Virus record (IMG/VR): IMGVR_UViG_3300049840_000016
Location: 1-27,454 of that record
Origin: a virus
Length of the DNA stretch: 27,454 nt
Strand: one strand, 5' to 3'
Positions 1 through 27,454 of this stretch are shown piece after piece. The first letter of the stretch is position 1. The number at the start of each line of letters is the position of its first letter. The position numbers and the translations under genes are program-made. The notes beneath the pieces were generated by a model. The model worked only from the letters and a program-made list of their open reading frames with translations, did no database searches and was not told the DNA's origin.

Positions 1-463
1 CATTTGCTGTAAATGAAAATATATTTTGAGTTGGTGGAGTCTCGCTACTGAAACCAGTACCACCAGAGTAAAAATCTGAAGAACTATCATATGTCACATT
101 AGAATTTTCTGCTGTGTCTATTCCACTCTCATCATTAAACTCATCTACTACACCATCTTTTAAATTAAATATTGTGAGTCCTTCTGCGACTGCCATCTTA
201 AACCCTAATAAACCAATATTAAAAGTATTTGTATCTGTTTGTGCTACATTTGCAACTTGAAATCCACCAGCACCATTTAATAAATCTGACGAACTGCCAG
301 GCAAACTTAATTTTGAAAATGCAATACTTGCTTGTGGTGATACATCTGCATTGATAATGGTATTGTCTAATATCTCATCTGCACCAATACTACCATCTGC
401 AATTTTATTACTATCTAATGCACTATCACCAATAAGATTTTTATTTACTTTTGTTATTCCCAT
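1..463 (-). CDS. Tail-fibre/adhesin paralogue, 3' end cut by the window edge
   Basis: The reading frame opens with ATG at 463 and stays open to base 1, giving 154 residues. It is the N-terminal block of the adhesin family found four more times here: a start MGITKVNKN, a segment with ISPQASIAFSKLSLPGSSSD-like wording, the core FNIGLLGFKMAVAEGLTIFN, then DGVVDEFND and a SSDFYSG motif. In the full-length relatives a glycine-rich centre and a conserved C-terminal domain follow; that part lies outside the window. Its ATG overlaps the last 10 bases of the upstream paralogue (454-463), so translation is probably coupled. The role as a virion fibre or adhesin is inferred from family architecture and location among structural genes. 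Which of the paralogues is actually displayed on the virion cannot be told. Confidence 0.85.
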   Translation of the reverse strand, partial: MGITKVNKNLIGDSALDSNKIADGSIGADEILDNTIINADVSPQASIAFSKLSLPGSSSDLLNGAGGFQVANVAQTDTNTFNIGLLGFKMAVAEGLTIFNLKDGVVDEFNDESGIDTAENSNVTYDSSSDFYSGGTGFSSETPPTQNIFSFTAN

Positions 464-1173
464 TGTAAAGACACTCCGTGTATTTTATTTGTACCAGTCA
501 AAGAAGAACCTACTATTTTCCAACGAACTTGAACTTGAGGACTTGAAGAACCAGTTAAAGATGTGCTACCAGAAAATATTTTGATACCACTTGAACCAGC
601 TTGATAACCTTCATCAGTTAATGTTATGTTATTAAATGTTGAGTTGTCTCTAGTAGCACTTATTGTAAAGTCTGAAGTTCCATCTGGTAATTCTGCGAAT
701 AAAACTATTCTTGCTGTACTTGGTGTTGTATTTGCAGTAAATGTATCTGATATTAATGTCATAGAAGTTGTTGAATTACTAAATGTATCTGCACTTGCAT
801 CATATGTTGCATTTGAACTTTCAGCAGTATCTACACCAGTGTTATCGTGAAATTCGTCTACTACACCATCTACTAAATTAAATATTGTGAGTCCATCATT
901 AACTGCCATCTTGAAACCTAACACACCAACATTAAATGCATTTTCATCAATACCAGCTGTATCAATAGCACCAAATGAACCATCACCACGAACAAATTGT
1001 GATGGTGGGCCAGGTAGTGCTAACTTAGTTGCTGAAATATTTGCACTAGGAGAGATGTTTTCGTTTTTTACTTCTGCACCTATCTTAGAGCTATCAACTG
1101 AACCAGTATTTATTTCACCACTTCCAATAGCGTCATTACTTAAATTTTGATTCTCTAACTTTGTTATGCCCAT
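454..1173 (-). CDS. Short adhesin-family paralogue lacking the glycine-rich centre
   Basis: The protein has 239 residues. Residues 1-130 are the conserved N-terminal block of this family (GPPSQFVRGDGSFG, then NAFNVGVLGFKMAVNDGLTI, then DGVVDEFHD). Residues about 135-239 are the conserved C-terminal block (SMTLISDTFTA, ATRDNSTFN, GSSGIKIFSGSTSLTG, VRWKIVGSS, ending HGVSLQWE). The two blocks are joined directly by a few residues where the longer relatives carry 300 or more glycine-rich residues. It overlaps its neighbours by 10 bases on both sides (ATGGGCATAA at 1164-1173, ATGGGAATAA at 454-463), so the last codons of one gene hold the start of the next. It may be a minimal fibre subunit or a deletion product of a longer adhesin. 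Virion role is inferred. Confidence 0.88.
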   Translation of the reverse strand: MGITKLENQNLSNDAIGSGEINTGSVDSSKIGAEVKNENISPSANISATKLALPGPPSQFVRGDGSFGAIDTAGIDENAFNVGVLGFKMAVNDGLTIFNLVDGVVDEFHDNTGVDTAESSNATYDASADTFSNSTTSMTLISDTFTANTTPSTARIVLFAELPDGTSDFTISATRDNSTFNNITLTDEGYQAGSSGIKIFSGSTSLTGSSSPQVQVRWKIVGSSLTGTNKIHGVSLQWE

Positions 1174-3062
1174 TGTAGTGCAACTCCGTGAATTTTATTT
1201 GTACCAGTAAGTGATGACCCAACAACTTTCCACCTCATCTGAACTTGTGGACTAGCACTTCCAGTTAAAGGTGTACTACCAGTATATATTTTAATACCAC
1301 TTGAACCACTTACATACCCAGTATCAGTTAATGATACTGAATTGTATGTTGTATTATCTCTTGTTACTGATATTGCAACATCAGTATTTAAATCATCTGC
1401 TATTTCTGCAAACAACACAACTCTTGAAGTAGATGGTGTCGCACTCGCAGTAAATGTATCTGATACTAAAGTCATACTTGTTGCACTTGAACCAGCATCA
1501 AAAACTAAAAGAATACCACCATCACCACCAGCATTTGTTCTACCACTAGTTGACCCTTCACCTCTAGCTCCATCAGCAAAAAGTGCTTGTCTTGGTGAAG
1601 GCAATCCAGTATAATATGGTGCTTCGTCAAATACACTTAATGGAGTAGGATTTGATGCACTACCAACTGCTGCTTCATATTCTAAAGATGGAGTTGCAAC
1701 ATATGTAGGATTAGAGTATCCAGCACCTCCACCAGCACCACCAGTATAACCGCCTGGGTCAGATGTACCACCACCTCCGTGATATCCAGAACCACCACCA
1801 CCATAGTGATAAGGTGGATAACCCATACCACCACCTTGAAAATGTATTGCATCTGGGTGTGGAGACTCTTGTGTCCACTCTGCTGGCCCAAATCCAGAAC
1901 CCTCACCAAAAGGATATGCCCCTAAATGTCCGTTTGCTTCTTGGTCTGCACCCCCACCAGATGCATTACTACCACCAGAACTAGCAGTAGGTACACTAAA
2001 CCCACCAGAACCATTAGTTCCAGCAGTAAATCCACCACCACCACCTTGTGCTGCTGGAGCACCGTTTGAATTTTCACCAGCACCACCAGAACCTACAATT
2101 AAAACTGCTTCACTAGCATTAGTTGGAGAAACTGTATCTGAAAAACCTGGCCCTTCAAATGGATAATTATTAGGTGTGCCTGGTGTATGATAATTTCCAG
2201 TTTCATTATATGTACCACCCTCTATGATTGTGACTTCACTATCAAATATACCAGTAAAACCACCACTTCCACCAGTAGAACCATAAGCACCACCACCATA
2301 ACCACCAGTAGCACCTATATCTGAACTTGGATATTGGGGGGTACTGTATTGTGGGCCAGCTCCTCCTTCACCTACAACATAATCCCAAGTAGCACCAGCG
2401 ATTGATGGACTTGCTATTGTACCTTGTACACTACCACCAGAACCTCCAGAACCAGCGGCATTGTTTCCAGCACCAGCACCAACCATAGTTGCTTCTATTG
2501 AAGTTGTTAATGTGGGAAATGTTATACTACCTTGAGTTCCAAATGCACCGAATGTAGCTTCTTGAGAAGTGTATGTAATTAATGGTGCGTGTTCTGGGTT
2601 TTCAAATGTAACTGCATCTACACCAAGATGCATTGCAACACCAGGCGTTGGTGATAAATTTTGATAAAAATCTGATGCTGATTCGTAAGATGCGTTTGAG
2701 TTTTCGCCAGTATCAATACCACCTTCACTATTAAATTCGTCTACGATACCATCAACAAGATTAAAAATAGTGAGTCCTTCATTGACTGCGAGTTTAAAAC
2801 CTAACACACCAACATTAAATGCATTAGTACCTACTGCACTTAAATCAACAGTACCAAAACTTCCATCACCTTTTAAAAAATCTGATGAACTTCCAGGCAA
2901 ACTAAATTTATTTAATGCGATTGCAGCTGATGGAGAAATATCACTATTGGTGATTGTTGCATTTGATATATCAGCAGTTGAAATTGAATTAGGTTGAATC
3001 TGTCCAGAACTAACTTTACCAGATTCTTCAATCATATTGCTGTTTACTTTAGTATCAGACAT
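1164..3062 (-). CDS. Glycine-rich tail-fibre/adhesin protein
   Basis: This 632-residue protein has three parts. Residues 1-125 are the conserved N-terminal block (SSSDFLKGDGSFG, NAFNVGVLGFKLAVNEGLTI, DGIVDEFNSEGGIDT). Residues about 165-510 are extremely rich in Gly with Ser, Ala, Tyr and Pro, starting with a beta segment ending MVGAGAGNNAAGSGGSGG, as in phage glycine-rich adhesin domains. Residues about 515-632 are the conserved C-terminal block ending HGVALQWA. Runs of GG and GGG resemble the polyglycine-II sandwich proposed for T-even gp38-type adhesins; that is a comparison of style, not a demonstrated fold. A Shine-Dalgarno-like TAGGTAAA lies just before ATG, 5 bases after the gp16 stop. 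It probably contributes to host recognition at the tail tip. It shows no transmembrane segment or signal peptide. Confidence 0.88.
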   Translation of the reverse strand: MSDTKVNSNMIEESGKVSSGQIQPNSISTADISNATITNSDISPSAAIALNKFSLPGSSSDFLKGDGSFGTVDLSAVGTNAFNVGVLGFKLAVNEGLTIFNLVDGIVDEFNSEGGIDTGENSNASYESASDFYQNLSPTPGVAMHLGVDAVTFENPEHAPLITYTSQEATFGAFGTQGSITFPTLTTSIEATMVGAGAGNNAAGSGGSGGSVQGTIASPSIAGATWDYVVGEGGAGPQYSTPQYPSSDIGATGGYGGGAYGSTGGSGGFTGIFDSEVTIIEGGTYNETGNYHTPGTPNNYPFEGPGFSDTVSPTNASEAVLIVGSGGAGENSNGAPAAQGGGGGFTAGTNGSGGFSVPTASSGGSNASGGGADQEANGHLGAYPFGEGSGFGPAEWTQESPHPDAIHFQGGGMGYPPYHYGGGGSGYHGGGGTSDPGGYTGGAGGGAGYSNPTYVATPSLEYEAAVGSASNPTPLSVFDEAPYYTGLPSPRQALFADGARGEGSTSGRTNAGGDGGILLVFDAGSSATSMTLVSDTFTASATPSTSRVVLFAEIADDLNTDVAISVTRDNTTYNSVSLTDTGYVSGSSGIKIYTGSTPLTGSASPQVQMRWKVVGSSLTGTNKIHGVALQWA

Positions 3063-6312: not shown

Positions 6313-7131
6313 TTATCCTACCATATAATTTATTGGTAACTCAAATCCTAGTTTCATTTCTTCTTCTAACTTAGTGATTTCATCTAACGCTTGTTGATAG
6401 ATTGCTTCACCGTTCATAGTAACTCCACCTAACATTTGAACACCATTAAATTTTGATAGGTTAGAACCCCATTGTTTTTTAATTAATGCAGTTGCATATC
6501 TTTTTAAATACATATCATCAAATACATCTGTGTATACTGCTGGGTCTAATTTTCTATAACATTCAATTAAAAGAAAATCACCGTTATTGAAATCTTTTTC
6601 CATATCTGCGTGAATGTATAATCTGTTTTGATGTTCTTTAAAATCTATTGGATATTCACCAGTAAGAATGTGGTCTAGAAAATCTAGATGCCTCATTGTC
6701 ATTTCATAGTGAATTATTGAAGTTGAACTGAAATCATATAAATCATTTAGTCTTAATTGATAACGAACATCAAATAAATTTTGAGTTAATTTATCTGTTA
6801 CTGGGTATACTTTTACAACTGATAATACACTATCTGGAATAGGTAAATAATTTTCTTGTTGTAAGAAGTCTGCTGTAATTGAACTATCAACCTTATCAGT
6901 TGCTGTAACTGCACTTTCATTACTTCTCATTCTTGTAATTTCAGTGGTTGTCAGTTGATGTTTTAAATATACTCTTTCAATACCATCATAGTGGTATTTT
7001 GAAAAATATTGTAAAGCTTCATCTACTCTATCATCTAATTGGTCATCAGATATATTGATATCAATGACACCTTTACCTAATGCTCTTAAACAATATTCTT
7101 TAAATGTTGACTTTGAAGTAGGTACTGCCAT
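6313..7131 (-). CDS. 13: Neck protein gp13-like (head completion)
   Basis: The protein has 272 residues (T4 gp13 has 309). In T4, gp13 and gp14 assemble on the portal after DNA packaging and form the tail-docking site. The N-terminus is the hallmark block of marine T4-like gp13: FKEYCLRALGKGVIDINISD, then DDRVDEALQYFSKYHYDGIE and RVYLKHQLT. A conserved LPIPDSVLSVVKVYPV lies near 115-130, YEMTMRHLDFLDHILTGEYP near 145, and a C-terminal helical region with KKQWGSNLSKFNGV and GGVTMNGEAIYQQALDEI. The start is preceded by AAAAAGGATTAGTT, a good Shine-Dalgarno, and by an exact late box TATAAATA. It ends two codons before gp14. It follows the oxygenase genes and probably opens a transcription unit for the neck genes. 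Confidence 0.93.
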   Translation of the reverse strand: MAVPTSKSTFKEYCLRALGKGVIDINISDDQLDDRVDEALQYFSKYHYDGIERVYLKHQLTTTEITRMRSNESAVTATDKVDSSITADFLQQENYLPIPDSVLSVVKVYPVTDKLTQNLFDVRYQLRLNDLYDFSSTSIIHYEMTMRHLDFLDHILTGEYPIDFKEHQNRLYIHADMEKDFNNGDFLLIECYRKLDPAVYTDVFDDMYLKRYATALIKKQWGSNLSKFNGVQMLGGVTMNGEAIYQQALDEITKLEEEMKLGFELPINYMVG

Positions 7132-10898: not shown

Positions 10899-12587
10899 TT
10901 ATTTCCACTGCAACGCAACACCGTGTATTTTATTTTCAGCAGTTTGATTACTTCCAACAATTTTCCAACGGACTTGTACTTGAGGTTGGCCAGGTGCAGC
11001 TCCAGTTAATGTAGTAGAACCAGAATATACTTTTGTACCACTACTACCACTTACATAACCAGTATCTGTTAATGTGATTGCATCGTAGTTAGTGTTATCT
11101 CTGGTTGCAGAAACTGACACATCTGTATTTAAATCATCACTTATTTCTGCAAATAAAACTATTCTTGCTTTAGTTGGTGTTGAGTTTGCAGTAAATGTAT
11201 CTGATACTAATGTGCTACTTGTGGATGTAGTTAATGCTTCCATTTCCAATACGACTATTTGTCCACTACCACCATCACCGCCTGGAATATTATAATAAGA
11301 GGGGCCTGAGCCACCTGGCCCACCACCGTGTGAACCACCTCCACTACCAGTGTTTACAACACCAGCATATCCAGTATCAGCTGCTAAAGTATGTGTGCTC
11401 TGTGGATTGTGGTTTCCATCACCACCACCACCTTCACCACCTTCTGTTTCACCGCCTGGAGCATATCTACCACCAGAACCACCGCCACCAACTTTACCAT
11501 CTGAATGACCATAACCAGCAGGAAACCAATTTAATTGTGGATTAGGAGGCCCTACTGCAATACCATCACCACCAGCACCAGCGTTTGCACCACTAGCAGC
11601 ATTACCTTGTTCACCAGCACCACCGCCTCCTCCACCAGCATAACCTGGCCCAGAAGCATAACAGATACCACCGTCAAATCCTTGTTGTGTTAAATCTCCA
11701 GCAGGATGTCTATTTTCTCCAGTTTCACCTTCACCTACTGTACCTTCTTCGTAACCACCACCTCCACCAGAACCACCAGGCAATCCGTCTGTTACTTCTT
11801 GGCCAGGAAAATCTTGGTCAGACCCAGATTCGTTAATAGTATATGCATGGCCACCAGAACCACCACCCTCTGCCGTAATTGTTGGGCCAAAAGTTGAATC
11901 ATCGCCTGGTCGTGAGTTTCTTCCTGCTGGATTATCTGGGGTTGCTATTGAAAGGGGAAAGATAGTTGGAGCATCGCCAGGAAAATATGGTTGTATTGCT
12001 GTTGGATAAGATGGGTGCCAAGGATGAAATCTACCTTCACCACCAGCACCAACATTTACTGCAACACTAGCACCACCAGTTACTGGAACATCAGCATCTA
12101 AAACAACACCACCAGCACCGCCGCCGGCACCTCCACCAACACCCATTCCACCGCCACCACCAGCGCCACCACCACCGATTGCAAAAACTTTAACGACAGT
12201 TGTAGTTGGTTCATTTGAAAATGTACCAGGCCCAGTTGATGTTAATCTTGTTAGAGTTGCTTGAGGTGTAGGAATAGGAGTAGGGCCGTCTAAATTTGAA
12301 TAAAAATCGGAACTAGCATCATATTTTGAAGTTGCATTTTCTGATGTGTCTATACCACTTTCATTGTTGAATTCATCAACAATACCATCAATTAAATTGA
12401 AAACAGTAAGTCCTTCACTTACTGCCATCTTAAAACCTAAGACACCAATATTAAATGCGTTTGTACTAATTTGAGCTGCATCTAATCCAGCAACTTTAGA
12501 TTCTGCAATACCAGCAGTTGGACTAATGTCTGCATTTTTTACTTCAGCGTCTTTTATGTTTGATGATTTGATAGTTGTTAATGGCAT
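10899..12587 (-). CDS. Glycine-rich tail-fibre/adhesin protein
   Basis: The protein has 562 residues. The N-terminal block (1-95) contains ISPTAGIAESKV, NAFNIGVLGFKMAVSEGLTV and DGIVDEFNNESGIDT. The centre (about 125-445) is glycine-rich and opens with VVKVFAIGGGGAGGGGGMGV. The C-terminal block (about 450-562) has STLVSDTFTANSTPTKARIV, a VSATRDNTNYD segment, GSSGTKVYSGSTTLTG and the end HGVALQWK. Unlike its relatives it has an extra AAPGQ before PQVQVRWKIVG. Its centre differs in sequence from those at 1164-3062 and 9126-10895 although the ends match. The start lies just past the stop of the fibre gene at 12590-13390, with only AGAGAT as a possible ribosome binding site. A virion adhesin role is inferred. 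Confidence 0.88.
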   Translation of the reverse strand: MPLTTIKSSNIKDAEVKNADISPTAGIAESKVAGLDAAQISTNAFNIGVLGFKMAVSEGLTVFNLIDGIVDEFNNESGIDTSENATSKYDASSDFYSNLDGPTPIPTPQATLTRLTSTGPGTFSNEPTTTVVKVFAIGGGGAGGGGGMGVGGGAGGGAGGVVLDADVPVTGGASVAVNVGAGGEGRFHPWHPSYPTAIQPYFPGDAPTIFPLSIATPDNPAGRNSRPGDDSTFGPTITAEGGGSGGHAYTINESGSDQDFPGQEVTDGLPGGSGGGGGYEEGTVGEGETGENRHPAGDLTQQGFDGGICYASGPGYAGGGGGGAGEQGNAASGANAGAGGDGIAVGPPNPQLNWFPAGYGHSDGKVGGGGSGGRYAPGGETEGGEGGGGDGNHNPQSTHTLAADTGYAGVVNTGSGGGSHGGGPGGSGPSYYNIPGGDGGSGQIVVLEMEALTTSTSSTLVSDTFTANSTPTKARIVLFAEISDDLNTDVSVSATRDNTNYDAITLTDTGYVSGSSGTKVYSGSTTLTGAAPGQPQVQVRWKIVGSNQTAENKIHGVALQWK

Positions 12588-14592: not shown

Positions 14593-17500
14593 CTATCCAG
14601 TTGCAACAACCCTTAATCTTTTTATAATTGGTGGATTAGTTGAATCTGTTCCTCTCATTCTTATTTTGATTTGGAACGCATTAAAGTCTGCAAGGTCTTT
14701 CGCAGAATATTCGTGTTCTATAAAGTCATCTCTTGTAGTAGATGAGTTAGTAGTAATATCTGGTTGTCCATTTGTATTAAAGAAAGTATAACCAACATCA
14801 TTAAAGTCTGATGAATCATCAGTTCTTAATGTTTTAAACATTACATCAATAGTTGATGTTGCTGGTCTGACTGCATCAAATTTTACATTAATCTGATTGG
14901 CTGCACTCTTCATTTGAACTTGTCGTGTTAGATATATTGCTTCTAAACTATCACCCTCTGGTTCAGTTGCTGGAACATATAATGTAGTTGGATAAACATC
15001 TGATGAACTTTGAACATTGTTAAGTCTATGAGTTATAGTTGCAATAGATGCTCTATCTAAATCAATAACTGGTGTTAAGTTATCAAACTCTGAAGACATA
15101 GTTAAAGTTAAGAAGAATGATTTAGATGAATTCAATTCGTTTGTTTCATTAATTGTTGATGTAATCATTCTTGGTACATCAAAATAATAGTTTCTACCTA
15201 ATACTATTGGTCTAGATGCACTAGTAGATTGTAAATTAAATGATGTTTGTGTACCGTCAACAGATGTTGCAGTTGTTGTTCTAATGTTTGCAGTAATTTT
15301 TGTATTTGGATATTCAACATTACTTACAAGTGGTTTCATAACATCCATCATTGCATTTTCAGTTACAACAGTTGTTGAATCACCAAATTTAATACCAGAG
15401 GTTGCATTTGAAGCTGTTGTTGCAGTTGCAGTCTGGGTTGCAAGTGTATTTGCAGTTGTAATTGTATACGAATCAATTCCTACATTTCCGACTGATGTAT
15501 GAGTTCTATTAATTTGGTCTAATGGTATTCCATCTACTTCATATAATTCTATACCAGCACCAGAACTATGTGCAATCGCACCAGTAGGTCTTGTTATACT
15601 GGTTACAGAAGAACCAGAAATAGTACCACTAAAGATTTCATCTTCTCTAATATCACCAGTAGTTGAATCTCTTGGAACTGTAATTTTTAATCTTACTGAA
15701 CCACTGCCTGGGAAACCAGTATTACTAGTTAATGTTAGTGAAGTATCAGAGGCACCAAAAGCACCGTTAAGAGTAGTTGAAACTCCAGACGATACACCAC
15801 TAATTGCAACATTATTTGTTGTTGCATACATATGGTGGTTTCTATGTGTAACTTTTACTACACCAGAACTTGCAAGTGATTCTAATGAATTTTGTTTTAA
15901 TGTTCTAGTTTCTACTGAATCATTTGTTAATACTAGATTTGATGTTTTACTTGTATCAAATTTTGCACGATAAAGTGAGAACTTAATATCTTCATCTTGA
16001 TATGCGTTCCAAGTTCTATTGTTTTGAGATTTAAATAACACACCAAGATATGGTTGGTCATTAACAATCGTTCCAGTATCAATATCTGCATCACCTAATT
16101 TAGAAATCCAAAGTTTATAATCTCTTGAATCTGTTTTCACAACCAATGCATATTCACTATGGTCTGCAACATAAATTGGTGATTCAAATTCAAATGTTGT
16201 AGCAGTAGTTGCGTTATCTGATAATAATATTTCAGAAGACTCTAGTGTTTTAGATGCAAGTGGTAATAATTTCTCAGTTGGATAACCATCTCTCATCTCT
16301 CTGATTTGAACAGTTACTGGAACTCTTTCATCTTTTTCTTGGAAATATAAATCTACTTTTGTAATAAACTCACCACCAACACTATCAACAATAAATGATT
16401 GTGCAAGCGGATCCCAAGGCTGTATTAAAGTTCTACCTCTATGTTGGAAACTTCTTGATTCAAAAACTTCCTCTTGGAATAATTGTCCGTTTCTTGTTCT
16501 TGTAACAGTTTCTTCAATAGTGTTTAAGAAACCTCTTGCAGTATAGATACCCTCTGCATATGTTTCTACACCTTCTAAATTGACATCATCTGCTTCATTA
16601 ATTCTAGAAGATGTTAATCTGAATTGTCTTTCACCAGTTTTAAATGCTGGGTTGCCTGGAGCGTTAGGGTCTGGAATACTAAAGACACCACTTATTGAAC
16701 CAGTAGGGCCTGTTATGAAATTATTACCATCTTCACCTGGCGGTAATAGTTTTTGTACAGTTCCACTTTCTGGAGTCTGTGTTCTTGTTCCAGTAAATAA
16801 ATTATATGTAATCTGAAGAACAGAATCTCTAGGAGTGCCTGGAGTTTCTGCACCAACTGGTGGTACTATTCCGTCAATAGTTGCACTTGGATTTGTTAAA
16901 TTCTGGAATTGTACAACAGAACAGAATTGTGTTAAATCAATATTAGTTGTTGCATCTGCATTGAAAAATTCTACACCATATAATCTATGTCCAGCACAAG
17001 TATGAATAGGGTCTTCTGCTCTTTCAATCTGAATTCTCCAAAACTTTTCACCTTGAATGTTAGGGCCAACTACACCCTCAGCTGCAGTTGTAAAGTCATA
17101 AGTATAAAATGCATTACTATTTCTTGAGATGTTTATTGTTGTATGTAATGAGAACTGTCCTACTGTATTAAATCCATATTCAGAATCAGAACTCATAATT
17201 TTTGCAACATAATCGTGTGCAGTATCGTTATTATCGTAACCAAATCTAATTTTACCTATGGCAGTCCAGTTTGGAGTTTCTGGTAAAGTGATTGTTGTTA
17301 ATGTTCCACCAGGCTTACCACCATCTGGAACACAGAAATCACCAATATATTGTCTATCAAAGAAAGGATAAACTCTTGTTTTAGGTTTCATTTTAGATGC
17401 TCTAAATGTAACATTTCTAGAACGAATAAATGGAACTACATCTTGTCTAATTAATTCATTACCGATAGGTTTATGGTCATTAACTTCAGTTACAAAAGTT

Positions 17501-20500
17501 CTTGTACCATTTCTAACTTGGTCTGTTAAAACTAATTCCCAAAGACCACCTCGTCCCCAACCATTACTAGTTTGTCCGATAACACCAGATGAAATAGTTT
17601 CCCAAGCATTCCATATAGTACCTAATGCATCTTCACCACCAGCGGCTTGTAATATCTGGTCAAAGTTACCCTCTAAGTTAATTACAATTTGTGGAAGTTT
17701 ATTTACTTCAAACCATTCATCACCAGATGGGTCTAATTCTAATACACCAACCCAAGCAAAGAAGTATGCAGCTTGAGCACTTTCTACTCTAGTTGCAAAC
17801 TTATTTCCAACAGTTTCAACAGAAGTAAATGGTAGCATACATTGGTCACCAATTTTAGAATAACCATCATTTGCTCTTGCAGTAGAATCTTCGTTTTGTT
17901 CTATAAGTGCAACATTCTTCATAGAGTATTTTGGTCTTAGTGTTCTGTTTTCATAATCTATTGCACAACTATAATCTTGGTGAGATACATCACCAGTTTT
18001 ATGTCCAGTAAAATTATCAACAACAAAACCAGATTTAAATCTATCAAATCCGTTTGCATCTAATACTTGGAAGTTTTCTGTTTCTGCTTCTAATAAGTTA
18101 AGAGTTGTATAATCTTCTAGTCGTTCTATTCTATTTTCTAAACGACCAATATCTCTCATTGTAAATCTGTTATTTTTTTGTATTCTTAAAAATATATCTT
18201 GTTCTGGTTCTTTGACATAAGGTTGCATTAATACATCAACTATTTTCATAGCTTCATTTTCAGATAATGGTTTAGGTGGTTCTGTTATTTCTGTTTCAAC
18301 ATCTAAACCTTCTTTAACTACAAACTGTTTATCTTTAGTTAAGAAAACACTATCTGTTCTACCTACATAAAAATCTAAATCATATTGAAAGTTAGAATTG
18401 TCTTGTGGAATATTTGAAACTATTGAACCAGCTGCAGAGAAGTTTCTTTGTGCAAAGTTAAATGTATAATCATTTACTCTTTCAGTAGATAAACTTTGTG
18501 ATGATGTTGTTACAGTAGATATTGTATCATCATTTGCAACAGTAGGTCTAAAATCTATTGAGTCGTGTAATAAGAATCTACCTCTAGGTTGTCTTTGTTC
18601 TGTGTCTACTCTTGTTGCAAGGTATGTAGGAATTTCTTTATAATCTATGTTTGAATATGAATCTACATTGAAGAAATCACCAGTACCGTGAGTAAAGTGG
18701 TCGCATACAATTAATAATTTACCAATAGGAACATCAACATTTGTTTTTCTGATTATTCTAGAAATATCATAATATGAATCTCTCATACCATCATCTAATA
18801 CATAATTACTAGTTACTACTGTATCACCAGCAGTAACAACAGTAGTTGTACCAGTTGCACCACTTGTTAAACCAGTAAATGTTTCACCGTCTGAAAAGTT
18901 TTTATTAGATAATAAAACATAAAAGAAAGTAGTTGGGCCTGTGTTAATAAGAGAACCTATTGCACCACTAGTTGTACCTTTTATTCTTTCACCTTTAGTA
19001 AATGTTCCACTTGAAACTGTTCCAGTAAATTGTGGAACTAATGGGTCGGTAGATGCGTTTGCAGATTCGTATATTGCTCTTATTTTATATACATCAGTTC
19101 TACCTAAAGAAATCTCTTTGTGATGTGCAGATGTACCATATTGTACACCACCACCTACACCATTGTTATCTACAATAACTAAATGAGCAGGATTGTTTGT
19201 TTTGTTTTTTTGTTGTGCAGTAGTTTTTGAAATTGTTGCAGTCACTTTAACTACACAATCTGAAGATGTTCCGAAAACAGTTGTATCAGTAATTGTTGCA
19301 GTTTTAGAATCACCAGCCAATACAGCAGAAGTCATATCATCAATATCAATAATATCTCCATCATTACACCCACCAGAACCATCATCTAAAATAGTAATTG
19401 CATAATTTGTATTAGATAGTGCATTAAATGTTTCGTTAGTTCCAGCAGTTATTACTATCTGTCCAGATGCATTTGATGTAACAATAAATTGTTTCTTAAA
19501 TGTATAAGAAGTTTGTGATACACCATTGTTGTCCGTAGTCAACATTGTTTTTGCATATTTCTTAACTGTTTTTCTTAAAAGAATATTTTTGTTTACATCA
19601 TTAATTTTTGTTCTTGTTCTAATTGCACCAACACTTGTTACATTACTAGAGATTAAAACTATATCTGAATTACCAGTACCAGCAGTATCTGGAGTTGTAA
19701 TACCAGAGTTTACTGGATATGTAGCTGTATTATTTGATGCATATGTAATAGTTGCTTTACCATTATATCCGTTAATTGCGTGGTCTTTAAATACAACAGT
19801 TCTACTTCCAGAACCACTTAATACTGAACCAGTAGTTGCAGTGAACGCTCCAGTTGCAGTAAATGTTGCAGTACCACTAGAACGAGTAGTATTAGATGTG
19901 TTTACAACTGCACCACCTTGAATACAGAAATAAGTTGCAGAAGTATTATTTGTTACACTTTCAATAACAATTTTTTCTGTTGCACTAGCAGCACCAGTTG
20001 GAACTTCTAAAACATCACCAGCTTTTAATTCAGTATTAAATAAAGTGTTTTGTCCAACTAAAGTATTTGTGTTTCTTGTAAGTGATACTGTACCAGTAAG
20101 ACTGAATCTACTTTGCATAGTACAATCAGCACTAAAGTTTGCTTGATTTGAATCATCATCATTCATAAAGACTTGTCTTACTTGACTAATGTCAAATGAC
20201 TCTATTGCACTAATTGTTAAATCTGTTGTTGTACCATTTTCGTGTACTAATTCATCTGATTGAGTTGATGCACTTGATTTTACTTTTTCACCACTTGAGA
20301 ATATACCATTTACATTTGTAAGATAAACTGCATCTGAACTAACAGAGTGAACAAATCCAGTTGCACCAGAATTTGCACCAGTTATTTTTGCCCCAGCAGC
20401 AAATTCAGATGAAGTTACTACTCCACTAAAATCAATCTCTGTAAACATTTTAATATCAAATAATCCAAGATTAAATGTTGAATCATTATCTGCACTATTT

Positions 20501-21918
20501 GATAAAAAGTCAGTTACTGTGGAATTATTTGCAGCTGTATCAAAACTTCTTACTCTTGCAACACCAATTTTTCCACCGTCTTCTGTTAAAATACTATCTG
20601 TTTCTATTCCTCTTCCTGGCCCGCCAGTTGTTCCAGTTACTTTAGATGCTGTAAAATTATCGTGAAGTGAAACTTCCATAAATGGTTCATCAATAGAACC
20701 AGGCGTTTCTGGAGATATGTCTGGAGAACCAAATGTATTTTCTACTACGATTGTATTACCAACTTCAACTGGTGTGATTGCGTTATCAACATTATCAGTT
20801 GTTCTTGGTTTTCTAATATCTATAAATGTTGGGTGACTTTTTTCTATTTCATAACCAGCAACATATGCCTTACCAGGCGTTAGATGTAAAGTAAGTAAAT
20901 CTTCAGATGCTGTATTTCCACTATCAGTAGTAGCACCAGATTCAAATATTCCATTATTAATACCATCAGCTAAAGTTTCTCTTGCATCTGGTTTAAAATC
21001 TCTAACAATATAGTGTCCAGATTCGTCATAAGTTCTTCTTGCAAGTGTTTCACCTAATACTGCATATTCAGTATTTCTTGATGCAGATAAAACATTACCA
21101 AGATTTACTCTCATTATTTCTACAAAATTTGTATCATTAGTATCTGTTAAAGATAATTTAGAAAGTGTTAATGAGATTTTTAATCTATGAGCACCAGCTG
21201 CGTTTTCGTTTGATGTACCAGTTGCATTATCATATAATGTACTATCTTCTTCTGGAGTTACTAAATCTTCTGTAACTGTAAAACCTATTCTATATGATGG
21301 TGTGTTTCCATACTTATCTAAAACTAATGTTTGTTCTGTAACATTTACAAAAATACCTCTAACAAAATATGTTCCAGCCGCAACTGTTACTGCTGAACCT
21401 ATTGCAGTTGCATCTGTTGATTGACAAGTTAATGATTCTTGTCCAGCAATAAATGAACCGACTGCACCGTTAGCTGTTAAGTTTTCACCATTAGAAAATA
21501 CAAAAGTTTCACCAGTTAAATCTGGATTTAAATATTTTACAAATAAAGTGATTGGGTCATCACCACTTGCAGCTGCAGTTCCTACAACTTTTGCAGATAC
21601 TCCAGATGTTGCACCAGTAATAACTTTATCTACATAAGATGAAATATTAGATGTAATGTCTGTGGTATTAAATGTTCCTTGAACTTTAACAGCATAATAC
21701 TGTTTGTCCATTCCAACTTCACCACCAGATATAATTGCACCTTCTTTAAAGATGTTTCTACCCATTTCTTCAACTTGATTTTGAAGTATAGATTGTTGTG
21801 TGGTTAGTTCTCTAGCCTGTACTGCAAAGCCAGGTCTATATAATACTTTATGAAAATTTTTACTTGTATCAAAATCATCATAATATGGTGATACATTTAG
21901 ATTTGTTTTTTGTGCCAT
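14593..21918 (-). CDS. Giant virion/baseplate structural protein (DUF4815-type)
   Basis: At 2441 residues this is by far the largest gene here. The N-terminus has the DUF4815-type opening (NLNVSPYYDDFDTSKNFHKV, LYRPGFAVQARELTTQQSIL, ending IFKEGAIISGGEV). A charged helical stretch near residues 1215-1290 (RDIGRLENRIERLEDYTTLN, LLEAETENFQVLD) and a segment near 1835-2010 (WDPLAQSFIVDSVGGEFITK, VDLYFQEKDERVPV, LVVKTDSRDYKLWISKLG) are further family landmarks. Several GA(T/N)SGA.G modules lie in the first half. It follows the gp8-like gene and precedes small structural genes, which in T4 is the position of the gp9/gp10 wedge and pin proteins. It may replace or connect these, but no homology to them is visible. 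Ribosome binding site is weak; the gp8 stop is 2 bases before its ATG. Confidence 0.88.
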   Translation of the reverse strand: MAQKTNLNVSPYYDDFDTSKNFHKVLYRPGFAVQARELTTQQSILQNQVEEMGRNIFKEGAIISGGEVGMDKQYYAVKVQGTFNTTDITSNISSYVDKVITGATSGVSAKVVGTAAASGDDPITLFVKYLNPDLTGETFVFSNGENLTANGAVGSFIAGQESLTCQSTDATAIGSAVTVAAGTYFVRGIFVNVTEQTLVLDKYGNTPSYRIGFTVTEDLVTPEEDSTLYDNATGTSNENAAGAHRLKISLTLSKLSLTDTNDTNFVEIMRVNLGNVLSASRNTEYAVLGETLARRTYDESGHYIVRDFKPDARETLADGINNGIFESGATTDSGNTASEDLLTLHLTPGKAYVAGYEIEKSHPTFIDIRKPRTTDNVDNAITPVEVGNTIVVENTFGSPDISPETPGSIDEPFMEVSLHDNFTASKVTGTTGGPGRGIETDSILTEDGGKIGVARVRSFDTAANNSTVTDFLSNSADNDSTFNLGLFDIKMFTEIDFSGVVTSSEFAAGAKITGANSGATGFVHSVSSDAVYLTNVNGIFSSGEKVKSSASTQSDELVHENGTTTDLTISAIESFDISQVRQVFMNDDDSNQANFSADCTMQSRFSLTGTVSLTRNTNTLVGQNTLFNTELKAGDVLEVPTGAASATEKIVIESVTNNTSATYFCIQGGAVVNTSNTTRSSGTATFTATGAFTATTGSVLSGSGSRTVVFKDHAINGYNGKATITYASNNTATYPVNSGITTPDTAGTGNSDIVLISSNVTSVGAIRTRTKINDVNKNILLRKTVKKYAKTMLTTDNNGVSQTSYTFKKQFIVTSNASGQIVITAGTNETFNALSNTNYAITILDDGSGGCNDGDIIDIDDMTSAVLAGDSKTATITDTTVFGTSSDCVVKVTATISKTTAQQKNKTNNPAHLVIVDNNGVGGGVQYGTSAHHKEISLGRTDVYKIRAIYESANASTDPLVPQFTGTVSSGTFTKGERIKGTTSGAIGSLINTGPTTFFYVLLSNKNFSDGETFTGLTSGATGTTTVVTAGDTVVTSNYVLDDGMRDSYYDISRIIRKTNVDVPIGKLLIVCDHFTHGTGDFFNVDSYSNIDYKEIPTYLATRVDTEQRQPRGRFLLHDSIDFRPTVANDDTISTVTTSSQSLSTERVNDYTFNFAQRNFSAAGSIVSNIPQDNSNFQYDLDFYVGRTDSVFLTKDKQFVVKEGLDVETEITEPPKPLSENEAMKIVDVLMQPYVKEPEQDIFLRIQKNNRFTMRDIGRLENRIERLEDYTTLNLLEAETENFQVLDANGFDRFKSGFVVDNFTGHKTGDVSHQDYSCAIDYENRTLRPKYSMKNVALIEQNEDSTARANDGYSKIGDQCMLPFTSVETVGNKFATRVESAQAAYFFAWVGVLELDPSGDEWFEVNKLPQIVINLEGNFDQILQAAGGEDALGTIWNAWETISSGVIGQTSNGWGRGGLWELVLTDQVRNGTRTFVTEVNDHKPIGNELIRQDVVPFIRSRNVTFRASKMKPKTRVYPFFDRQYIGDFCVPDGGKPGGTLTTITLPETPNWTAIGKIRFGYDNNDTAHDYVAKIMSSDSEYGFNTVGQFSLHTTINISRNSNAFYTYDFTTAAEGVVGPNIQGEKFWRIQIERAEDPIHTCAGHRLYGVEFFNADATTNIDLTQFCSVVQFQNLTNPSATIDGIVPPVGAETPGTPRDSVLQITYNLFTGTRTQTPESGTVQKLLPPGEDGNNFITGPTGSISGVFSIPDPNAPGNPAFKTGERQFRLTSSRINEADDVNLEGVETYAEGIYTARGFLNTIEETVTRTRNGQLFQEEVFESRSFQHRGRTLIQPWDPLAQSFIVDSVGGEFITKVDLYFQEKDERVPVTVQIREMRDGYPTEKLLPLASKTLESSEILLSDNATTATTFEFESPIYVADHSEYALVVKTDSRDYKLWISKLGDADIDTGTIVNDQPYLGVLFKSQNNRTWNAYQDEDIKFSLYRAKFDTSKTSNLVLTNDSVETRTLKQNSLESLASSGVVKVTHRNHHMYATTNNVAISGVSSGVSTTLNGAFGASDTSLTLTSNTGFPGSGSVRLKITVPRDSTTGDIREDEIFSGTISGSSVTSITRPTGAIAHSSGAGIELYEVDGIPLDQINRTHTSVGNVGIDSYTITTANTLATQTATATTASNATSGIKFGDSTTVVTENAMMDVMKPLVSNVEYPNTKITANIRTTTATSVDGTQTSFNLQSTSASRPIVLGRNYYFDVPRMITSTINETNELNSSKSFFLTLTMSSEFDNLTPVIDLDRASIATITHRLNNVQSSSDVYPTTLYVPATEPEGDSLEAIYLTRQVQMKSAANQINVKFDAVRPATSTIDVMFKTLRTDDSSDFNDVGYTFFNTNGQPDITTNSSTTRDDFIEHEYSAKDLADFNAFQIKIRMRGTDSTNPPIIKRLRVVATG

Positions 21919-21920
21919 TC

Positions 21921-23438
21921 TTAAAACTCAACTATGATTTTAACATCCTCTGTTTGGTCAGATGCTCGTGAAATAGGTCTTCTGTTTTCTATATAAATTA
22001 TGTCCCCACTATCTGGGTGCATTTCTGGATTTGCATATCCACTTGAAAATGCGATACTATCAACAGTTTCAGAACCAGTTGATGATGGAGTGCCAGATGC
22101 ACTAGAGTCTGCACCAGATACTGCATTTGCACCAGAAAATAAAACTGTGTTACTTGCAGTATTAACACCATAATTTGTAAATCTTTCTTGTTGATAATAT
22201 AAAATCTTATTTGTTGCATCCCATTCAACGACTCTACCGATTGCACCAGTAGTTGCTTGAGTTATTTTTTCATCTGCATCAAAATCTCCACTTGGTGAAG
22301 GAATATAAATTGCATATGTTTGTCTGGCAGTAGATGCTGTAAATAATGACGAACTGTTAAATTGAGTAGGATTTTTCATAATACCTACTTGTCTAAAGTC
22401 GTTTGCAACAGTAATATCATTACCTTCTTCTTGTTCAAACTTTGTATTTAAAATTATATAGTGTCCACCTAATTCTTCAACTGCATCGTGTCCGTGACCA
22501 ACTTGAGGTGATATAATTGGAGTTATAGTTCCAGCACTAGCTGAATTCCAAGTTGATAAAGTACCTCCACTTATTAAAGATGTTGCACCAGCATTTGTAT
22601 AAACATTAGTTCCTGCCAAATCTACTGTTGCAAAAGTATAATTTGCACCACTAGCTTGTACTGATGATACACCAGTTTCACCAAATCTTGTTATTACATT
22701 TGAACTCACAACAACCTTTAAGATTCCACCAGTTCCGTCTCCAGCAACTTTAACATAATAAGTTCCATCTGGATATCCACTACCTTGACTTGTTACCAAG
22801 AAAGTATCAATAGGAGCACCATTAAAAGGTGCAGAGTCTGTACTTGTTGTTACTGCACCAGATGATACAGTTGAGTCTGTTGCGACTGCCATAAAGTCAG
22901 TTGTTAAAAATTTGTCTACTTGAGTGGTTGTCAATGTGTACATATATTGTAAATAATAACCACCAACAAATTGTTTTACTGGGGAAGTAAAAGTAGGTTC
23001 TGTTGAAAGTGCGATTTTTACTCCAGAAGAATTTAAGTTATATAAAACTTTGTAAACTCTGTAATCTGAAGTTATGAAAAAATATGTAGAATCAACAAGA
23101 TTACTTGCACCAGTTTGATTTGAAGGATTAGCTGCACTAATGTTATGTTCGTACATATCGTAAGTAGTACCAGATGTATATGTTCTTCTAGGAACACCTC
23201 TTGATACATCAGAAGATGCAATCGCATTTGCACCTAACATTGAGTCCCATCTATAATTCTCTGATGTAATATCGTCTACTGGACTTGGTGGAGAAGTATC
23301 ACTTCCACCAGAAGTTCCACTAGTAAAAGGAGTTGATTTTCCTACAAACATATAATAGTTTTCGTTTGTTTCAGAAAATGATTCCTCAAACTGAGCAGCA
23401 TTTGTTTGTCTAAATTTTTCTGTAATAATTGCAGCCAT
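21921..23438 (-). CDS. 8: Baseplate wedge protein, gp8-like
   Basis: The protein has 505 residues against 334 in T4 gp8, which bridges the inner and peripheral baseplate wedge. The conserved start (IITEKFRQTNAAQFEESFSE, YYMFVGKSTPFT), the PPSPVDDITSENY.WD..LG block, PRRTYTSGTTYDMYEHN near 83-99, SDYRVYKVLYNLNSSGV near 124-140, and the terminal GDIIYIENRRPISRASDQ, EDVKIIVEF match marine T4-like gp8. Additional stretches include SQGSGYPDGTYYVKVAGDGT near 217-236 and a GDFDADEKITQATTGAIG module near 384-401. GAAGGAAATACA precedes the ATG. Its position directly before the giant baseplate-type gene fits wedge assembly. Confidence 0.83.
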   Translation of the reverse strand: MAAIITEKFRQTNAAQFEESFSETNENYYMFVGKSTPFTSGTSGGSDTSPPSPVDDITSENYRWDSMLGANAIASSDVSRGVPRRTYTSGTTYDMYEHNISAANPSNQTGASNLVDSTYFFITSDYRVYKVLYNLNSSGVKIALSTEPTFTSPVKQFVGGYYLQYMYTLTTTQVDKFLTTDFMAVATDSTVSSGAVTTSTDSAPFNGAPIDTFLVTSQGSGYPDGTYYVKVAGDGTGGILKVVVSSNVITRFGETGVSSVQASGANYTFATVDLAGTNVYTNAGATSLISGGTLSTWNSASAGTITPIISPQVGHGHDAVEELGGHYIILNTKFEQEEGNDITVANDFRQVGIMKNPTQFNSSSLFTASTARQTYAIYIPSPSGDFDADEKITQATTGAIGRVVEWDATNKILYYQQERFTNYGVNTASNTVLFSGANAVSGADSSASGTPSSTGSETVDSIAFSSGYANPEMHPDSGDIIYIENRRPISRASDQTEDVKIIVEF

Positions 23439-24895: not shown

Positions 24896-24907
24896 TCTTA
24901 TTCCTTT

Positions 24908-24919: not shown

Positions 24920-24942
24920 ATTTCTTAGGATATTTATTTTTC

Positions 24943-25740: not shown

Positions 25741-25743
25741 TTT

Positions 25744-26034
25744 TTATCCTTTAGGGTGTTTATCTTTTATAGCTTTAATTTTTGTTTTCCAACCATCAAT
25801 TCCATTATGATATAAATCATCTAGTTGGTCTTCTATACTTGGATAGTCATCTTTTCTATCCCTTTGGTATTGTAATTTATCATATGCAGTTTTAAGTTCT
25901 GCCATTTTTGTTTTAACTTTATCTTCATCAACAGAAACTAATTTTCCATCTTTATCAAACGCACCAGCAGTATCGTCAACAGTAACGACATCTGAATATA
26001 ATTCTCTGATTGCTTCGTGTCTAGTATAACTCAT
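25744..26034 (-). CDS. Small fibre-associated protein, XkdW-like end
   Basis: The protein has 96 residues from ATG 26034, which gives an ATGA overlap with the upstream stop; an ATG at 26052 in the same frame would add six residues. Residues 1-50 start SYTRHEAIRELYSDVVTVDD. The C-terminus YPSIEDQLDDLYHNGIDGWK, then IKAIKDKHPKG is a known small-phage-protein pattern (YP...DQLD.LYH.......W...I..vK.K.P), similar in style to the end of XkdW-type proteins. Such genes usually sit by tail-fibre genes, as here, and may act in fibre attachment or assembly. The exact role is unknown. Confidence 0.78.
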   Translation of the reverse strand: MSYTRHEAIRELYSDVVTVDDTAGAFDKDGKLVSVDEDKVKTKMAELKTAYDKLQYQRDRKDDYPSIEDQLDDLYHNGIDGWKTKIKAIKDKHPKG

Positions 26035-26552
26035 CCACCTATCTCCATACAAATTAAACTTGTTGAACCTCTAAATAAATCATCAGAACTTCTTCTATTA
26101 ATATAATAAGTATATGAACCACTACTTCCTCTAAAATATAATTTATAAGTTATTTGTGATGTAGTGCTTGGTGAGTCTAAAAAACTATAACCTAGAGAAT
26201 CATACATACCAGTAGAGGCATAAGTAGCTGAACCATAATTATATGAACCACCACCAGTTCCTAGACCAATAGCATTATATCCACCACCAGCAATATCTCT
26301 GTAAATTGTAAAAAACATATGGGCATTTTCATTATTACCCATTGTACCTACATCAAACATTGTTAACACTTTACTAGATGTTGATGATGGAGTTAAAGTT
26401 AAGGATAATCCAGTTATTGCTACATCAGATGTAGATGTTGTAGATGCAGTATCAGATTTAAAAGATGATTGCACTTGTAATATTTTTCCAGCACCACTTG
26501 CAGCTGTTAGTGTATTGTTTACATTTAAATTATCTACTGTTAATGTTCCCAT
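26031..26552 (-). CDS. Beta-rich tail-fibre-like protein
   Basis: The protein has 173 residues. It starts MGTLTVDNLNVNNTLTAASG and continues GKILQVQSSFKSD, then TLTPSSTSSKVLTMFDVGTM, a layout common in marine phage fibre tips: a short attachment segment followed by a globular beta domain. The rest is rich in Gly, Ser and Tyr (GGGSYNYGSATYASTGMYDS, LYFRGSSGSYTYYINRRSSD). The start is coupled to the preceding gene by TAATG at 26552. It ends in an ATGA overlap with the small gene downstream. No enzyme motif is seen. Virion location is inferred. Confidence 0.8.
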   Translation of the reverse strand: MGTLTVDNLNVNNTLTAASGAGKILQVQSSFKSDTASTTSTSDVAITGLSLTLTPSSTSSKVLTMFDVGTMGNNENAHMFFTIYRDIAGGGYNAIGLGTGGGSYNYGSATYASTGMYDSLGYSFLDSPSTTSQITYKLYFRGSSGSYTYYINRRSSDDLFRGSTSLICMEIGG

Positions 26553-27223
26553 TATTTGGTTACTCCATATAAAGTGAATGTTCCAGATATATTGCCTGTA
26601 CTCATATATAATTGTACTGCTGTCCCATCAACAATTTCAGAACTCTCAACAAATGTTGCTGTACCAAATCCAGTAGATTGTACATTGCCTGATATTGGAT
26701 AACCTAAAATCCAATTTGTTTGTGGTGGGTGATTTGAATCACCCATTCTAAATAAATCCATTGTTCCACTTAAAAATTCAAAAGTATCACCAGGCATATA
26801 ATAACCACTTGAAGCATTAGCCGCAAGCCAAAATTGAGCTGCACTTGAAGCCCCTTGTTGTTGTAAACCTGCCACAGATGAAAATCCATTAACAAATACA
26901 GTATTATAGTTTGATGATGTGTTATATGTTGGTGTTGAACCAATACCAAATCTTCCATAAAATAAAGCAGCATTATCAGAAACAGCTGTTACATTATCCA
27001 TAACAATTCTATAACTTGAATAAAGAGCAGAACCAGAAGTTGTGTCTAAATCAGTAAAAGCTACTGTGGCCGCATTAGAAACTGTTTGTGTATTAATTTT
27101 TATAAGACCAACACCAGCACTTCTTAACGCTTCTTGAGAAAGTAGAGTTGTTGATGCAGTTCCATCTGTGATAAGTGCAGTACCATCTCTTTTTTGTATA
27201 CTATCTACTTTTAAAATACCCAT
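26552..27223 (-). CDS. Tail-fibre-like protein with shared C-terminal motif
   Basis: The protein has 223 residues. The start MGILKVDSIQKRDGTALITD is the typical short attachment segment of marine phage fibre proteins. The main body is a predicted beta domain containing SSYRIVMDNVTAVSDNAALF and LYSS-type strands, and the end VQLYMSTGNISGTFTLYGVT is the terminal motif also present at 3457-4320 and 23792-24727. AAGGAAAATAA precedes the ATG, just after the stop of the partial chaperone-like gene. It forms a compact set with the two genes downstream of it. Receptor-binding function is inferred. Confidence 0.82.
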   Translation of the reverse strand: MGILKVDSIQKRDGTALITDGTASTTLLSQEALRSAGVGLIKINTQTVSNAATVAFTDLDTTSGSALYSSYRIVMDNVTAVSDNAALFYGRFGIGSTPTYNTSSNYNTVFVNGFSSVAGLQQQGASSAAQFWLAANASSGYYMPGDTFEFLSGTMDLFRMGDSNHPPQTNWILGYPISGNVQSTGFGTATFVESSEIVDGTAVQLYMSTGNISGTFTLYGVTK

Positions 27224-27232
27224 TTATTTTCC

Positions 27233-27454
27233 TTAGCTTGGTTCTGTTGGCCAAGTAACTTTTTTTACTTTGTCAACAGTATCTAATCCTTTTGTTAAAT
27301 CTCTCAGTTCTTCTCTATACACTTGCCATTTACCTTTAGTTGTACTATCCATTCTAGAGTCACTTATGTCTGGCATTTGTGTCCAATCACTTTCTTTTAA
27401 AAGTCTATTTCTTATTGGTCGTATTTCATCTAATGCTTCACGAAGTTCACCCTC
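27233..27454 (-). CDS. Tail-assembly-chaperone-like protein (copy 1), 5' end outside window
   Basis: The last 73 residues are in the window and end at TAA 27233-27235. The pattern IRPIRNRLLKESDWTQMPDI, then KGKWQVYREELRDLTKGLDT and KVTWPTEPS matches the chaperone-like gene at 23467-23760, with a small length difference between SDW and W..YR. Its start lies beyond the right edge. It precedes the fibre gene at 26552-27223. A role in tail or fibre assembly is inferred from family pattern. Confidence 0.78.
   Translation of the reverse strand, partial: EGELREALDEIRPIRNRLLKESDWTQMPDISDSRMDSTTKGKWQVYREELRDLTKGLDTVDKVKKVTWPTEPS
27238..27316 (-). repeat. Direct repeat, copy B (3' end of chaperone-like gene)
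   Basis: This matches 23472-23550 in the same orientation at roughly 85-90 percent by eye. It could serve as homology for recombination that would delete or duplicate the 3.8 kb between the copies, which holds four fibre-type genes and three small ones. Confidence 0.8.

What the first reader, a model, noticed from the sequence alone, without database searches (positions are those of the whole stretch)
1..27454. Near-total absence of GATC over 27 kb, enforced by codon choice
Reading the whole window I found one GATC only (16410-16413, inside GGATCC). Base composition alone would give several tens. The coding shows active avoidance: Asp is normally GAT, yet wherever I checked an Asp followed by a codon starting with C (for example at about 4504, 5693, 5794, 7045, 7472, 8638, 14550, 15520, 21550, 25828) it is GAC. 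Asn before C still uses AAT freely (10570-10580), so this is not a general rule for third bases before C. The likely meaning is long selection by a GATC-cutting host restriction system or by GATC-dependent methylation or repair, which points to the host's defences.
Basis: partly seen in the sequence, partly recalled or inferred. Interest (0 to 1): 0.8.

Follow-up and report, generated by a model that had tools for sequence, protein, structure and literature searches.

The report
Marine phage purged of restriction sites
This ocean phage has lost almost every copy of GATC and of several other short DNA words of the kind that bacterial restriction enzymes cut, which suggests that the bacteria it infects carry many such enzymes; the strategy is known in phages, and what is unusual here is how many words are gone at once.

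Summary
In detail: one GATC (16410) in 27,454 bases, where Markov models give 62-89 and 300 codon shuffles give 61.6, minimum 45. Asp before C is GAC in 32 of 33 cases.

GATC is not alone: CATG, ACGT and TCGA are equally depleted. Contigs G005 (99.95% to window 1-25,832) and G027 overlap by 127 identical bases and give 94.5 kb of a near-identical virus. There ACGT is 0/122, TCGA 0/90, CATG 5/166, GATC 9/215, GGWCC 0/50, ACCTG 11/272, CAATTG 2/62 (observed/expected). Isolates HTVC008M, Melnitz and Mosig purge other sets, again rich in palindromes. T4 shows no comparable purge, though GATC is 0.42; two cyanophages purge GCGC/CCGG but keep GATC.

The virus or its 97% relative encodes a C5 methyltransferase, a TET/JBP-type oxygenase and Mom.

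Best explanation: long selection by many patchy type II restriction systems. 71 of 397 genomes in the order of a probe-identified SAR11 genome carry a C5 methyltransferase. Host and GATC cutter remain unidentified; DpnII family 0 of 397. A new member of a known kind, with unusual breadth.

The parts
1..27454 (.). Whole window: T4-like structural-gene region almost free of GATC, CATG, ACGT and TCGA
16410..16413 (.). The only GATC, inside GGATCC, in Trp-Asp-Pro codons
7930..7933 (.). First of two CATG sites
11846..11849 (.). Second of two CATG sites
6313..7131 (-). Neck protein gene (gp13-like), used to find relatives
   Evidence: 65.7% identical to HTVC008M, 62.5% to Melnitz, 56.6% to Mosig
14593..21918 (-). 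Long ORF (2441 aa); place and size suggest the counterpart of the ORF labelled VrlC in HTVC008M (inferred, not searched)
21921..23438 (-). ORF (505 aa); place suggests a baseplate wedge protein (inferred, not searched)

Best explanation
The window comes from a T4-like phage of marine bacteria whose genome has been purged by selection of the recognition sites of many type II restriction systems; GATC is one of about ten such words. Synonymous codon choice, such as GAC for GAT before C, removes sites without changing proteins. The selecting agents are most likely restriction-modification systems spread patchily through the population of possible hosts: no one cell has them all, but a phage lineage that passes through many hosts must survive each. 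DNA modification by the phage (C5 methyltransferase with a TET/JBP-type oxygenase, and a Mom-type enzyme) is probably a second layer. Shown: the absence, its breadth, its extent over 94.5 kb, its dependence on lineage, constraint on GATC at codons, and the modification genes in near-identical or 97% identical relatives. Inferred: that restriction is the agent, that the phage is lytic, and that the modification genes serve against restriction. Not shown: the host, and the enzymes that would cut GATC, CATG, ACGT or TCGA.
For: Breadth on 94.5 kb against a null that keeps proteins, codon counts and closely the codon-junction dinucleotides: ACGT 0/122, TCGA 0/90, CATG 5/166, GATC 9/215, CCGG 2/23, GGWCC 0/50, ACCTG 11/272, CAATTG 2/62, AGTACT 1/37. 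Enzyme-like discrimination by one central base: GGWCC 0/49 but GGSCC 54/7 here and 0/60 against 46/13 in Melnitz; the reverse in HTVC008M (60/52 against 0/11) and Mosig (69/62 against 0/18). Palindromes are enriched among strongly avoided 6-mers: 5 of 18 against 27 of 1373 tested (p 1.4e-5), and likewise in HTVC008M, Melnitz and Mosig. Lineage dependence: in 48 loci with at least 78% neck identity ACGT is 0/562 and GATC 28/1059, in the 32 loci at 67-71% they are 309/470 and 396/805. Codon-level constraint: GAC before C kept in all relatives at 27 of 30 sites against 37 of 71 elsewhere, p 1.8e-4. Modification genes. Candidate host systems: 71 of 397 genomes of the order of SAR11 genome G512 and 33 of 151 of the order of SAR86 genome G066 have a C5 methyltransferase over cut-off; some lie beside nuclease-like genes. 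Published: 19 of 172 Ca. Pelagibacter ubique genomes with restriction systems (PMC11066056, passage).
Against: No enzyme for GATC was found: DpnII family 0 of 397 over cut-off. HTVC008M and Mosig were grown on HTCC1062, and two papers report almost no restriction systems in SAR11 (passages). The sampled SAR11 and SAR86 DNA (220 kb from three genomes) does not avoid GATC itself. The host of this virus is unknown; PstS points weakly to Alphaproteobacteria. The codon test for CATG shows no constraint across the wider clade (13 of 30 against 10 of 21). 6-bp palindromes are mildly low in T4 and the cyanophages too (medians 0.82-0.86), and T4 has GATC at 0.42. Non-palindromic words such as ACCTG and CCTGA are purged as well and were not matched to an enzyme. 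Some ordinary words deviate by graded amounts (CCAG 885/551, AATT 821/1070), so the null does not catch all codon-pair bias.
Confidence: 0.82

Rival explanations
1. A cause specific to GATC: host Dam methylation, MutH-type mismatch repair, or GATC-dependent regulation makes GATC harmful to this phage.
For: GATC is among the most depleted words and is low in several relatives, even 0.42 in T4.
Against: CATG, ACGT, TCGA, GGWCC and ACCTG are purged as strongly, and some related lineages purge other words while GATC is normal, for example L250 and L255. No PF02086 gene over cut-off in 24 phage records.
Confidence: 0.05
2. The phage makes its own sequence-specific nucleases to destroy host DNA, and avoids their sites, as chloroviruses are said to do (recalled).
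For: An uncharacterised protein, G027:8635-9696 (phrog_2496), has a stretch that by eye resembles a PD-(D/E)XK nuclease. HTVC008M and Mosig purge words although grown on a host reported to be poor in restriction systems.
Against: About ten words are purged and the sets differ between close lineages, which would need many nucleases per genome. No restriction-enzyme family was recognised in the few phage proteins scanned; this was not a scan of every gene.
Confidence: 0.06
3. Deletion and modification divide the work: the purged words are those that the phage's own C5 methyltransferase/TET and Mom cannot protect.
For: Only 1 of 23 avoided 5-mers in this virus contains GpC, against 21% of all (p 0.06), and GGCC and TGCA are in excess. 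GpC is the target that I recall for a phage C5 methyltransferase paired with TET (Burke 2021; only its reference line was seen; the paper is not held).
Against: Melnitz, with the same three genes, does not show it (4 of 14 against 24%), and Mosig, without them, shows a similar trend at k=6 (9 of 70 against 22%, p 0.06). GTGCAC and CGCG contain GpC and are absent. The methyltransferase specificity is unknown. This is an addition to the best explanation more than a rival.
Confidence: 0.2
4. Mutation bias, codon-pair bias or metagenome assembly artefact.
For: Codon-junction bias is real here (CTGG and CAGG), and the window is a metagenome contig.
Against: Zeros and near-zeros remain with proteins, codons and junctions fixed; the same kind of purge is seen in the genomes of three isolates; close lineages purge different words.
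Confidence: 0.04

Closest known systems
Restriction-site avoidance in lytic dsDNA phages (Rusinov et al. 2018, PMC6286503; abstract, passages and first part of the Discussion seen)
   Same: Near-elimination of orthodox type II sites, mostly palindromes, in a virulent-looking dsDNA phage
   Different: Many words at once in one genome, including non-palindromic ones, and no host enzyme known for them
GANTC depletion in pelagiphages (PMC9516812; passages seen)
   Same: Phages of SAR11 that lack a short methylation or restriction motif, sorted by lineage
   Different: There one motif, mainly in podoviruses; here GANTC is not depleted in the window virus (GAWTC 185/187, GASTC 56/69) but is in HTVC008M (23/143 and 12/81)
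Mom of phage Mu (Pfam PF25680)
   Same: G012 protein L092:9351-10145 matches PF25680 at 3.2e-53; Mu Mom is 32.3% identical over 74% of it
   Different: Sits in a T4-like phage near recombination genes; activity and sequence preference untested
Phage C5 methyltransferase with TET oxygenase (Burke et al. 2021; recalled, paper not held)
   Same: Adjacent genes of both families over cut-off (PF00145 184.9 bits, PF12851 44.4 bits), also in Melnitz
   Different: Product and specificity unknown

Membership tests
Restriction-site avoidance | Sites strongly below a composition- and codon-aware expectation | tested here: met
Restriction-site avoidance | Avoided words look like type II sites (palindromes, enzyme-like degeneracy) | tested here: met
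   palindromes enriched among avoided 6-mers; GGWCC/GGSCC split. ACCTG and CCTGA are exceptions
Restriction-site avoidance | Host encodes enzymes for the avoided sites | tested here: inconclusive
   Host unknown; type II-like loci are patchy in the SAR11 and SAR86 orders, but DpnII family 0 of 397
Restriction-site avoidance | Phage DNA is cut less, and infects better, than DNA with the sites | not testable with these tools
   Needs an experiment
Dam/GATC-dependent effect | Only GATC affected | tested here: not met
Mom family (PF25680) | Profile match over the curated cut-off | tested here: met
   G012 180.8 bits against 27.1; G027 182.5 bits
Mom family (PF25680) | Modifies adenine in DNA | not testable with these tools
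   Needs an experiment
C5 methyltransferase plus TET/JBP pathway | Both families in adjacent genes, over cut-off | tested here: met
   G027:18555-19535 and 19532-20731; Melnitz

The most novel reading that the evidence does not exclude
The set of purged words in each of these phages is a readable record of the restriction specificities that circulate in streamlined ocean bacteria, a group reported to have few; and the phages defend in two layers at once, modifying what their own enzymes reach (Mom, C5 methyltransferase with TET) and deleting the rest.
Probability: 0.3. Interest if true: 0.75.

Novelty: new member of a known kind. Interest (0 to 1): 0.48.

Why it matters
It suggests that restriction is a strong and many-sided force on phages of the smallest ocean bacteria, for which two papers report almost no restriction systems (passages) and a later one 19 of 172 genomes. 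The purged words predict which specificities to look for, and the methyltransferase loci in 71 of 397 genomes of the SAR11 order are places to look, so the question becomes testable.

Tried and rejected
GATC alone as the explanation: rejected, other words are purged as strongly. Dam-like family PF02086 in phage records: 0 of 24 over cut-off. DpnII family in the SAR11 order: 0 of 397 over cut-off. Host from the PstS gene: best hits 63% in mixed Gamma- and Alphaproteobacteria from a capped list of 80; in the tree it joins Alphaproteobacteria with open support and not SAR86; no conclusion. A GpC rule linking the methyltransferase to tolerated words: inconclusive. Tolerance of GGCC linked to the methyltransferase: not clean across phages. 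TGCA excess as a sign of the modified site: part of it is codon-junction bias, so not used. Codon-level constraint on CATG: none across the wider clade, so CATG purging looks confined to the nearest relatives. PDB sequence search with the TET-like protein: nothing useful. Pfam on the SAR86 neighbour L324:5742-6641, which I had taken by eye for an endonuclease: no family. Structure prediction and fold search were not used.
Full report
Observation. The window (27,454 bases, 34% G+C) has one GATC, at 16410-16413, against 62 to 89 expected from composition or Markov models. Shuffling synonymous codons within 24 genes that I picked from the ORF list gives 61.6 +/- 5.5, minimum 45 in 300 shuffles. 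Asp before C is GAC in 32 of 33 cases; before A, G or T it is GAT in 447 of 526. Asn before C is AAT in 45 of 53. But CATG (2), ACGT (0) and TCGA (0) are missing too.

What the window is. The 24 genes all lie on the minus strand. The neck protein at 6313-7131 is 65.7% identical to that of Pelagibacter phage HTVC008M, 62.5% to Methylophilales phage Melnitz and 56.6% to Pelagibacter phage Mosig; the gene order around it is like theirs. Contig G005 matches window bases 1-25,832 at 99.95%; the last 1.6 kb of the window has no such match there. G005 and G027, from one metagenome, overlap end to end by 127 identical bases, so together they give 94.5 kb of a near-identical virus. G012 is a 95-98% relative. 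The host is not known.

Breadth. On the 94.5 kb, with proteins and codon counts fixed and codon-junction dinucleotides closely kept (34 samples), counts on both strands are ACGT 0/122, TCGA 0/90, CATG 5/166, GATC 9/215, CCGG 2/23, GGACC/GGTCC 0/50, ACCTG/CAGGT 11/272, CCTGA/TCAGG 9/130, CAATTG 2/62, AGTACT 1/37, GTGCAC 0/16. Ordinary words also deviate, by graded amounts (CCAG 885/551, AATT 821/1070), so the null misses some codon-pair bias, but that bias gives no zeros at such expectations. Among 1373 six-mers tested, 18 are at 0.2 or less, and 5 of these are palindromes, against 27 palindromes in all (p 1.4e-5); p is 3.1e-7 in HTVC008M, 5.2e-9 in Melnitz, 5.2e-11 in Mosig. GGWCC is 0/49 while GGSCC is 54/7.

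Relatives. Of 80 loci found with the neck gene (recounted), the 48 with at least 78% identity have no ACGT (0/562 pooled, first-order expectation), and GATC is absent in 33, 1-3 in 14 and 9 in L030 (28/1059 pooled). CATG is absent in only 7 of the 48 and TCGA in 31, so these two are purged mainly near the window. The 32 loci at 67-71% have GATC 396/805 and ACGT 309/470. Of 80 loci found with a clamp-loader gene, the 39 with at least 83% identity have no ACGT (0/393) and GATC 30/848 (absent in 25); the 41 at 64-68% vary, some with GATC normal but AGCT or TGCA low. The two sets share contigs and near-identical strains, so loci are not independent. In the isolates (130.0 of 147.3 kb of HTVC008M, 132.3 of 141.4 kb of Melnitz-3, 122.7 of 141.5 kb of Mosig), coding counts are: HTVC008M TCGA 2/143, CGCG 0/23, AGTACT 0/52, TCTAGA 0/30, GAATTC 0/23; Melnitz GATC 22/346, CGCG 0/41, GGWCC 0/60, AACGTT 0/38; Mosig ACGT 0/197, GATC 16/224, GGCCC 0/18, AGTACT 0/31.

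Controls (50 kb each, or the whole 34.9 kb of HTVC010P). T4: one word at the threshold (GAGATC 1/14), though GATC is at 0.42. Cyanophages P-HM2 and P-RSM6 purge GCGC (0/17, 0/12) and CCGG (0/15, 0/27) but keep GATC (1.15, 1.05), CATG and ACGT. HTVC010P purges other words (CTAAG 0/40, CTCAG 0/24) and keeps GATC (1.13). Six-bp palindromes have medians of 0.82-0.86 in T4 and the cyanophages too, so mild palindrome avoidance is general; what sets this group apart is the number of words near zero.

Constraint at codons. Where the window has GAC before C, all aligned relatives in a set of 43 contigs or loci (at least 78% group, near-identical strains left out) keep GAC at 27 of 30 sites, against 37 of 71 sites before other bases (p 1.8e-4); Asn and Tyr controls show nothing. 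For CAC before G (CATG) there is no difference: 13 of 30 against 10 of 21.

Modification genes. G027 has a C5 methyltransferase at 19532-20731 (PF00145, 3.3e-54), next to an ORF that by place and size, as in Melnitz, is DNA polymerase, and a Tet_JBP oxygenase at 18555-19535 (PF12851, 1.3e-11). G027 and G012 have a Mom-family gene. G012 also has an N6/N4 methyltransferase (PF01555) that G027 lacks. Melnitz has the C5, Tet_JBP and Mom genes, the last annotated DUF465 in three of four Melnitz records. Its authors note a type II methylase in both Melnitz and its host (PMC9004378, passages). HTVC008M and Mosig have no match over cut-off to Mom, PF01555, PF00145 or PF02086. Across fragments, Mom was found in 2 of 24 and 1 of 41 records, PF01555 over cut-off in 1 of 24 and 9 of 41, PF00145 in 6 of 23.

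Possible hosts. The phage PstS joins Alphaproteobacteria with open support. An exact SAR11 16S probe site (probe recalled) marks G512 and G422, 2 of 385 genomes. In the order of G512, 71 of 397 genomes have a C5 methyltransferase over cut-off; in the order of SAR86 genome G066, 33 of 151. I fetched the surroundings in 20 of the 71 and scanned ten neighbours that I chose, from nine loci. Pfam: HNH_2, two DUF4420 (PD-(D/E)XK-like), NgoFVII and AIPR over cut-off, PDDEXK_5 0.1 bit under it, nothing in four. PADLOC named HNH, MzaD, MzaE and a DrmC-like match; NCBIfam matches (seven of the same ten plus three others) were all under their cut-offs. So type II-like loci exist in this order, but a C5 methyltransferase alone does not prove restriction. 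DpnII family: 0 of 397. SAR11 samples have GATC 300/254 and 188/162, a SAR86 sample 214/214, so the sampled genomes do not avoid it. In print: one SAR11 genome in more than 100 (PMC7029224), none in eight MAGs (PMC9516812), 19 of 172 genomes (PMC11066056); passages only were read.

Mechanism and rivals. Many patchy type II systems explain a many-word, lineage-specific, palindrome-rich purge with codon-level constraint. A GATC-only cause fails on the other words. Phage-borne nucleases would need about ten enzymes; none was recognised, but not every gene was scanned. Mutation bias does not give different words in close relatives. A division of labour between modification and deletion is attractive and not established.

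Known work and verdict. Site avoidance is long known and surveyed (PMC6286503), and GANTC depletion in pelagiphages is published (PMC9516812). Nine searches of open-licence papers listed no report of a many-word purge in T4-like phages of streamlined bacteria; subscription papers were not covered. I rate it a new member of a known kind, of unusual breadth.

Noticed in passing
MZ577098.1 69571-70380 (in L088) and L087:5208-6194: Melnitz-3 genes annotated DUF465 and hypothetical are a Mom-family protein and a Tet_JBP oxygenase.
   Followed up: partly
L327 (P-RSM6, 50 kb) and HTVC008M: P-RSM6 has no TTCAA/TTGAA in its coding sequence (0 against 172 expected) and HTVC008M no TCAAGA (0/84): strong, non-palindromic gaps without an explanation here.
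   Followed up: no
L030, L206, L208: Close relatives in which GATC has partly come back (9/29, 6/29, 4/12), perhaps relaxed selection or recombination.
   Followed up: no
L044, L228-L230, L214: Relatives that lack other palindromes: AGCT 0/17 in L044 and 0/14 in L214, TGCA 4/15, 19/33 and 1/12 in L228-L230.
   Followed up: no
L377 (G512) and L381, L382: Two C5 methyltransferase genes in tandem in genomes of the SAR11 order, with HNH, DUF4420 or NgoFVII-like neighbours.
   Followed up: partly
L363:5666-7708: AIPR/MzaE-like protein beside a C5 methyltransferase in a genome of the SAR11 order (NCBIfam score under its cut-off).
   Followed up: partly
L288:8635-9696 (G027): phrog_2496 protein of unknown function with a stretch that by eye resembles a PD-(D/E)XK nuclease; 81 matching records, 80 of them Synechococcus phages or cyanophages.
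   Followed up: no
window 1164-3062, 9126-10895, 10899-12587: Three glycine-rich ORFs with a similar C-terminal end (TNKIHGVALQW or close), perhaps tail-fibre paralogues (by eye).
   Followed up: no
window 25833-27454: The end of the window differs from the near-identical contig G005, which has other genes there.
   Followed up: no
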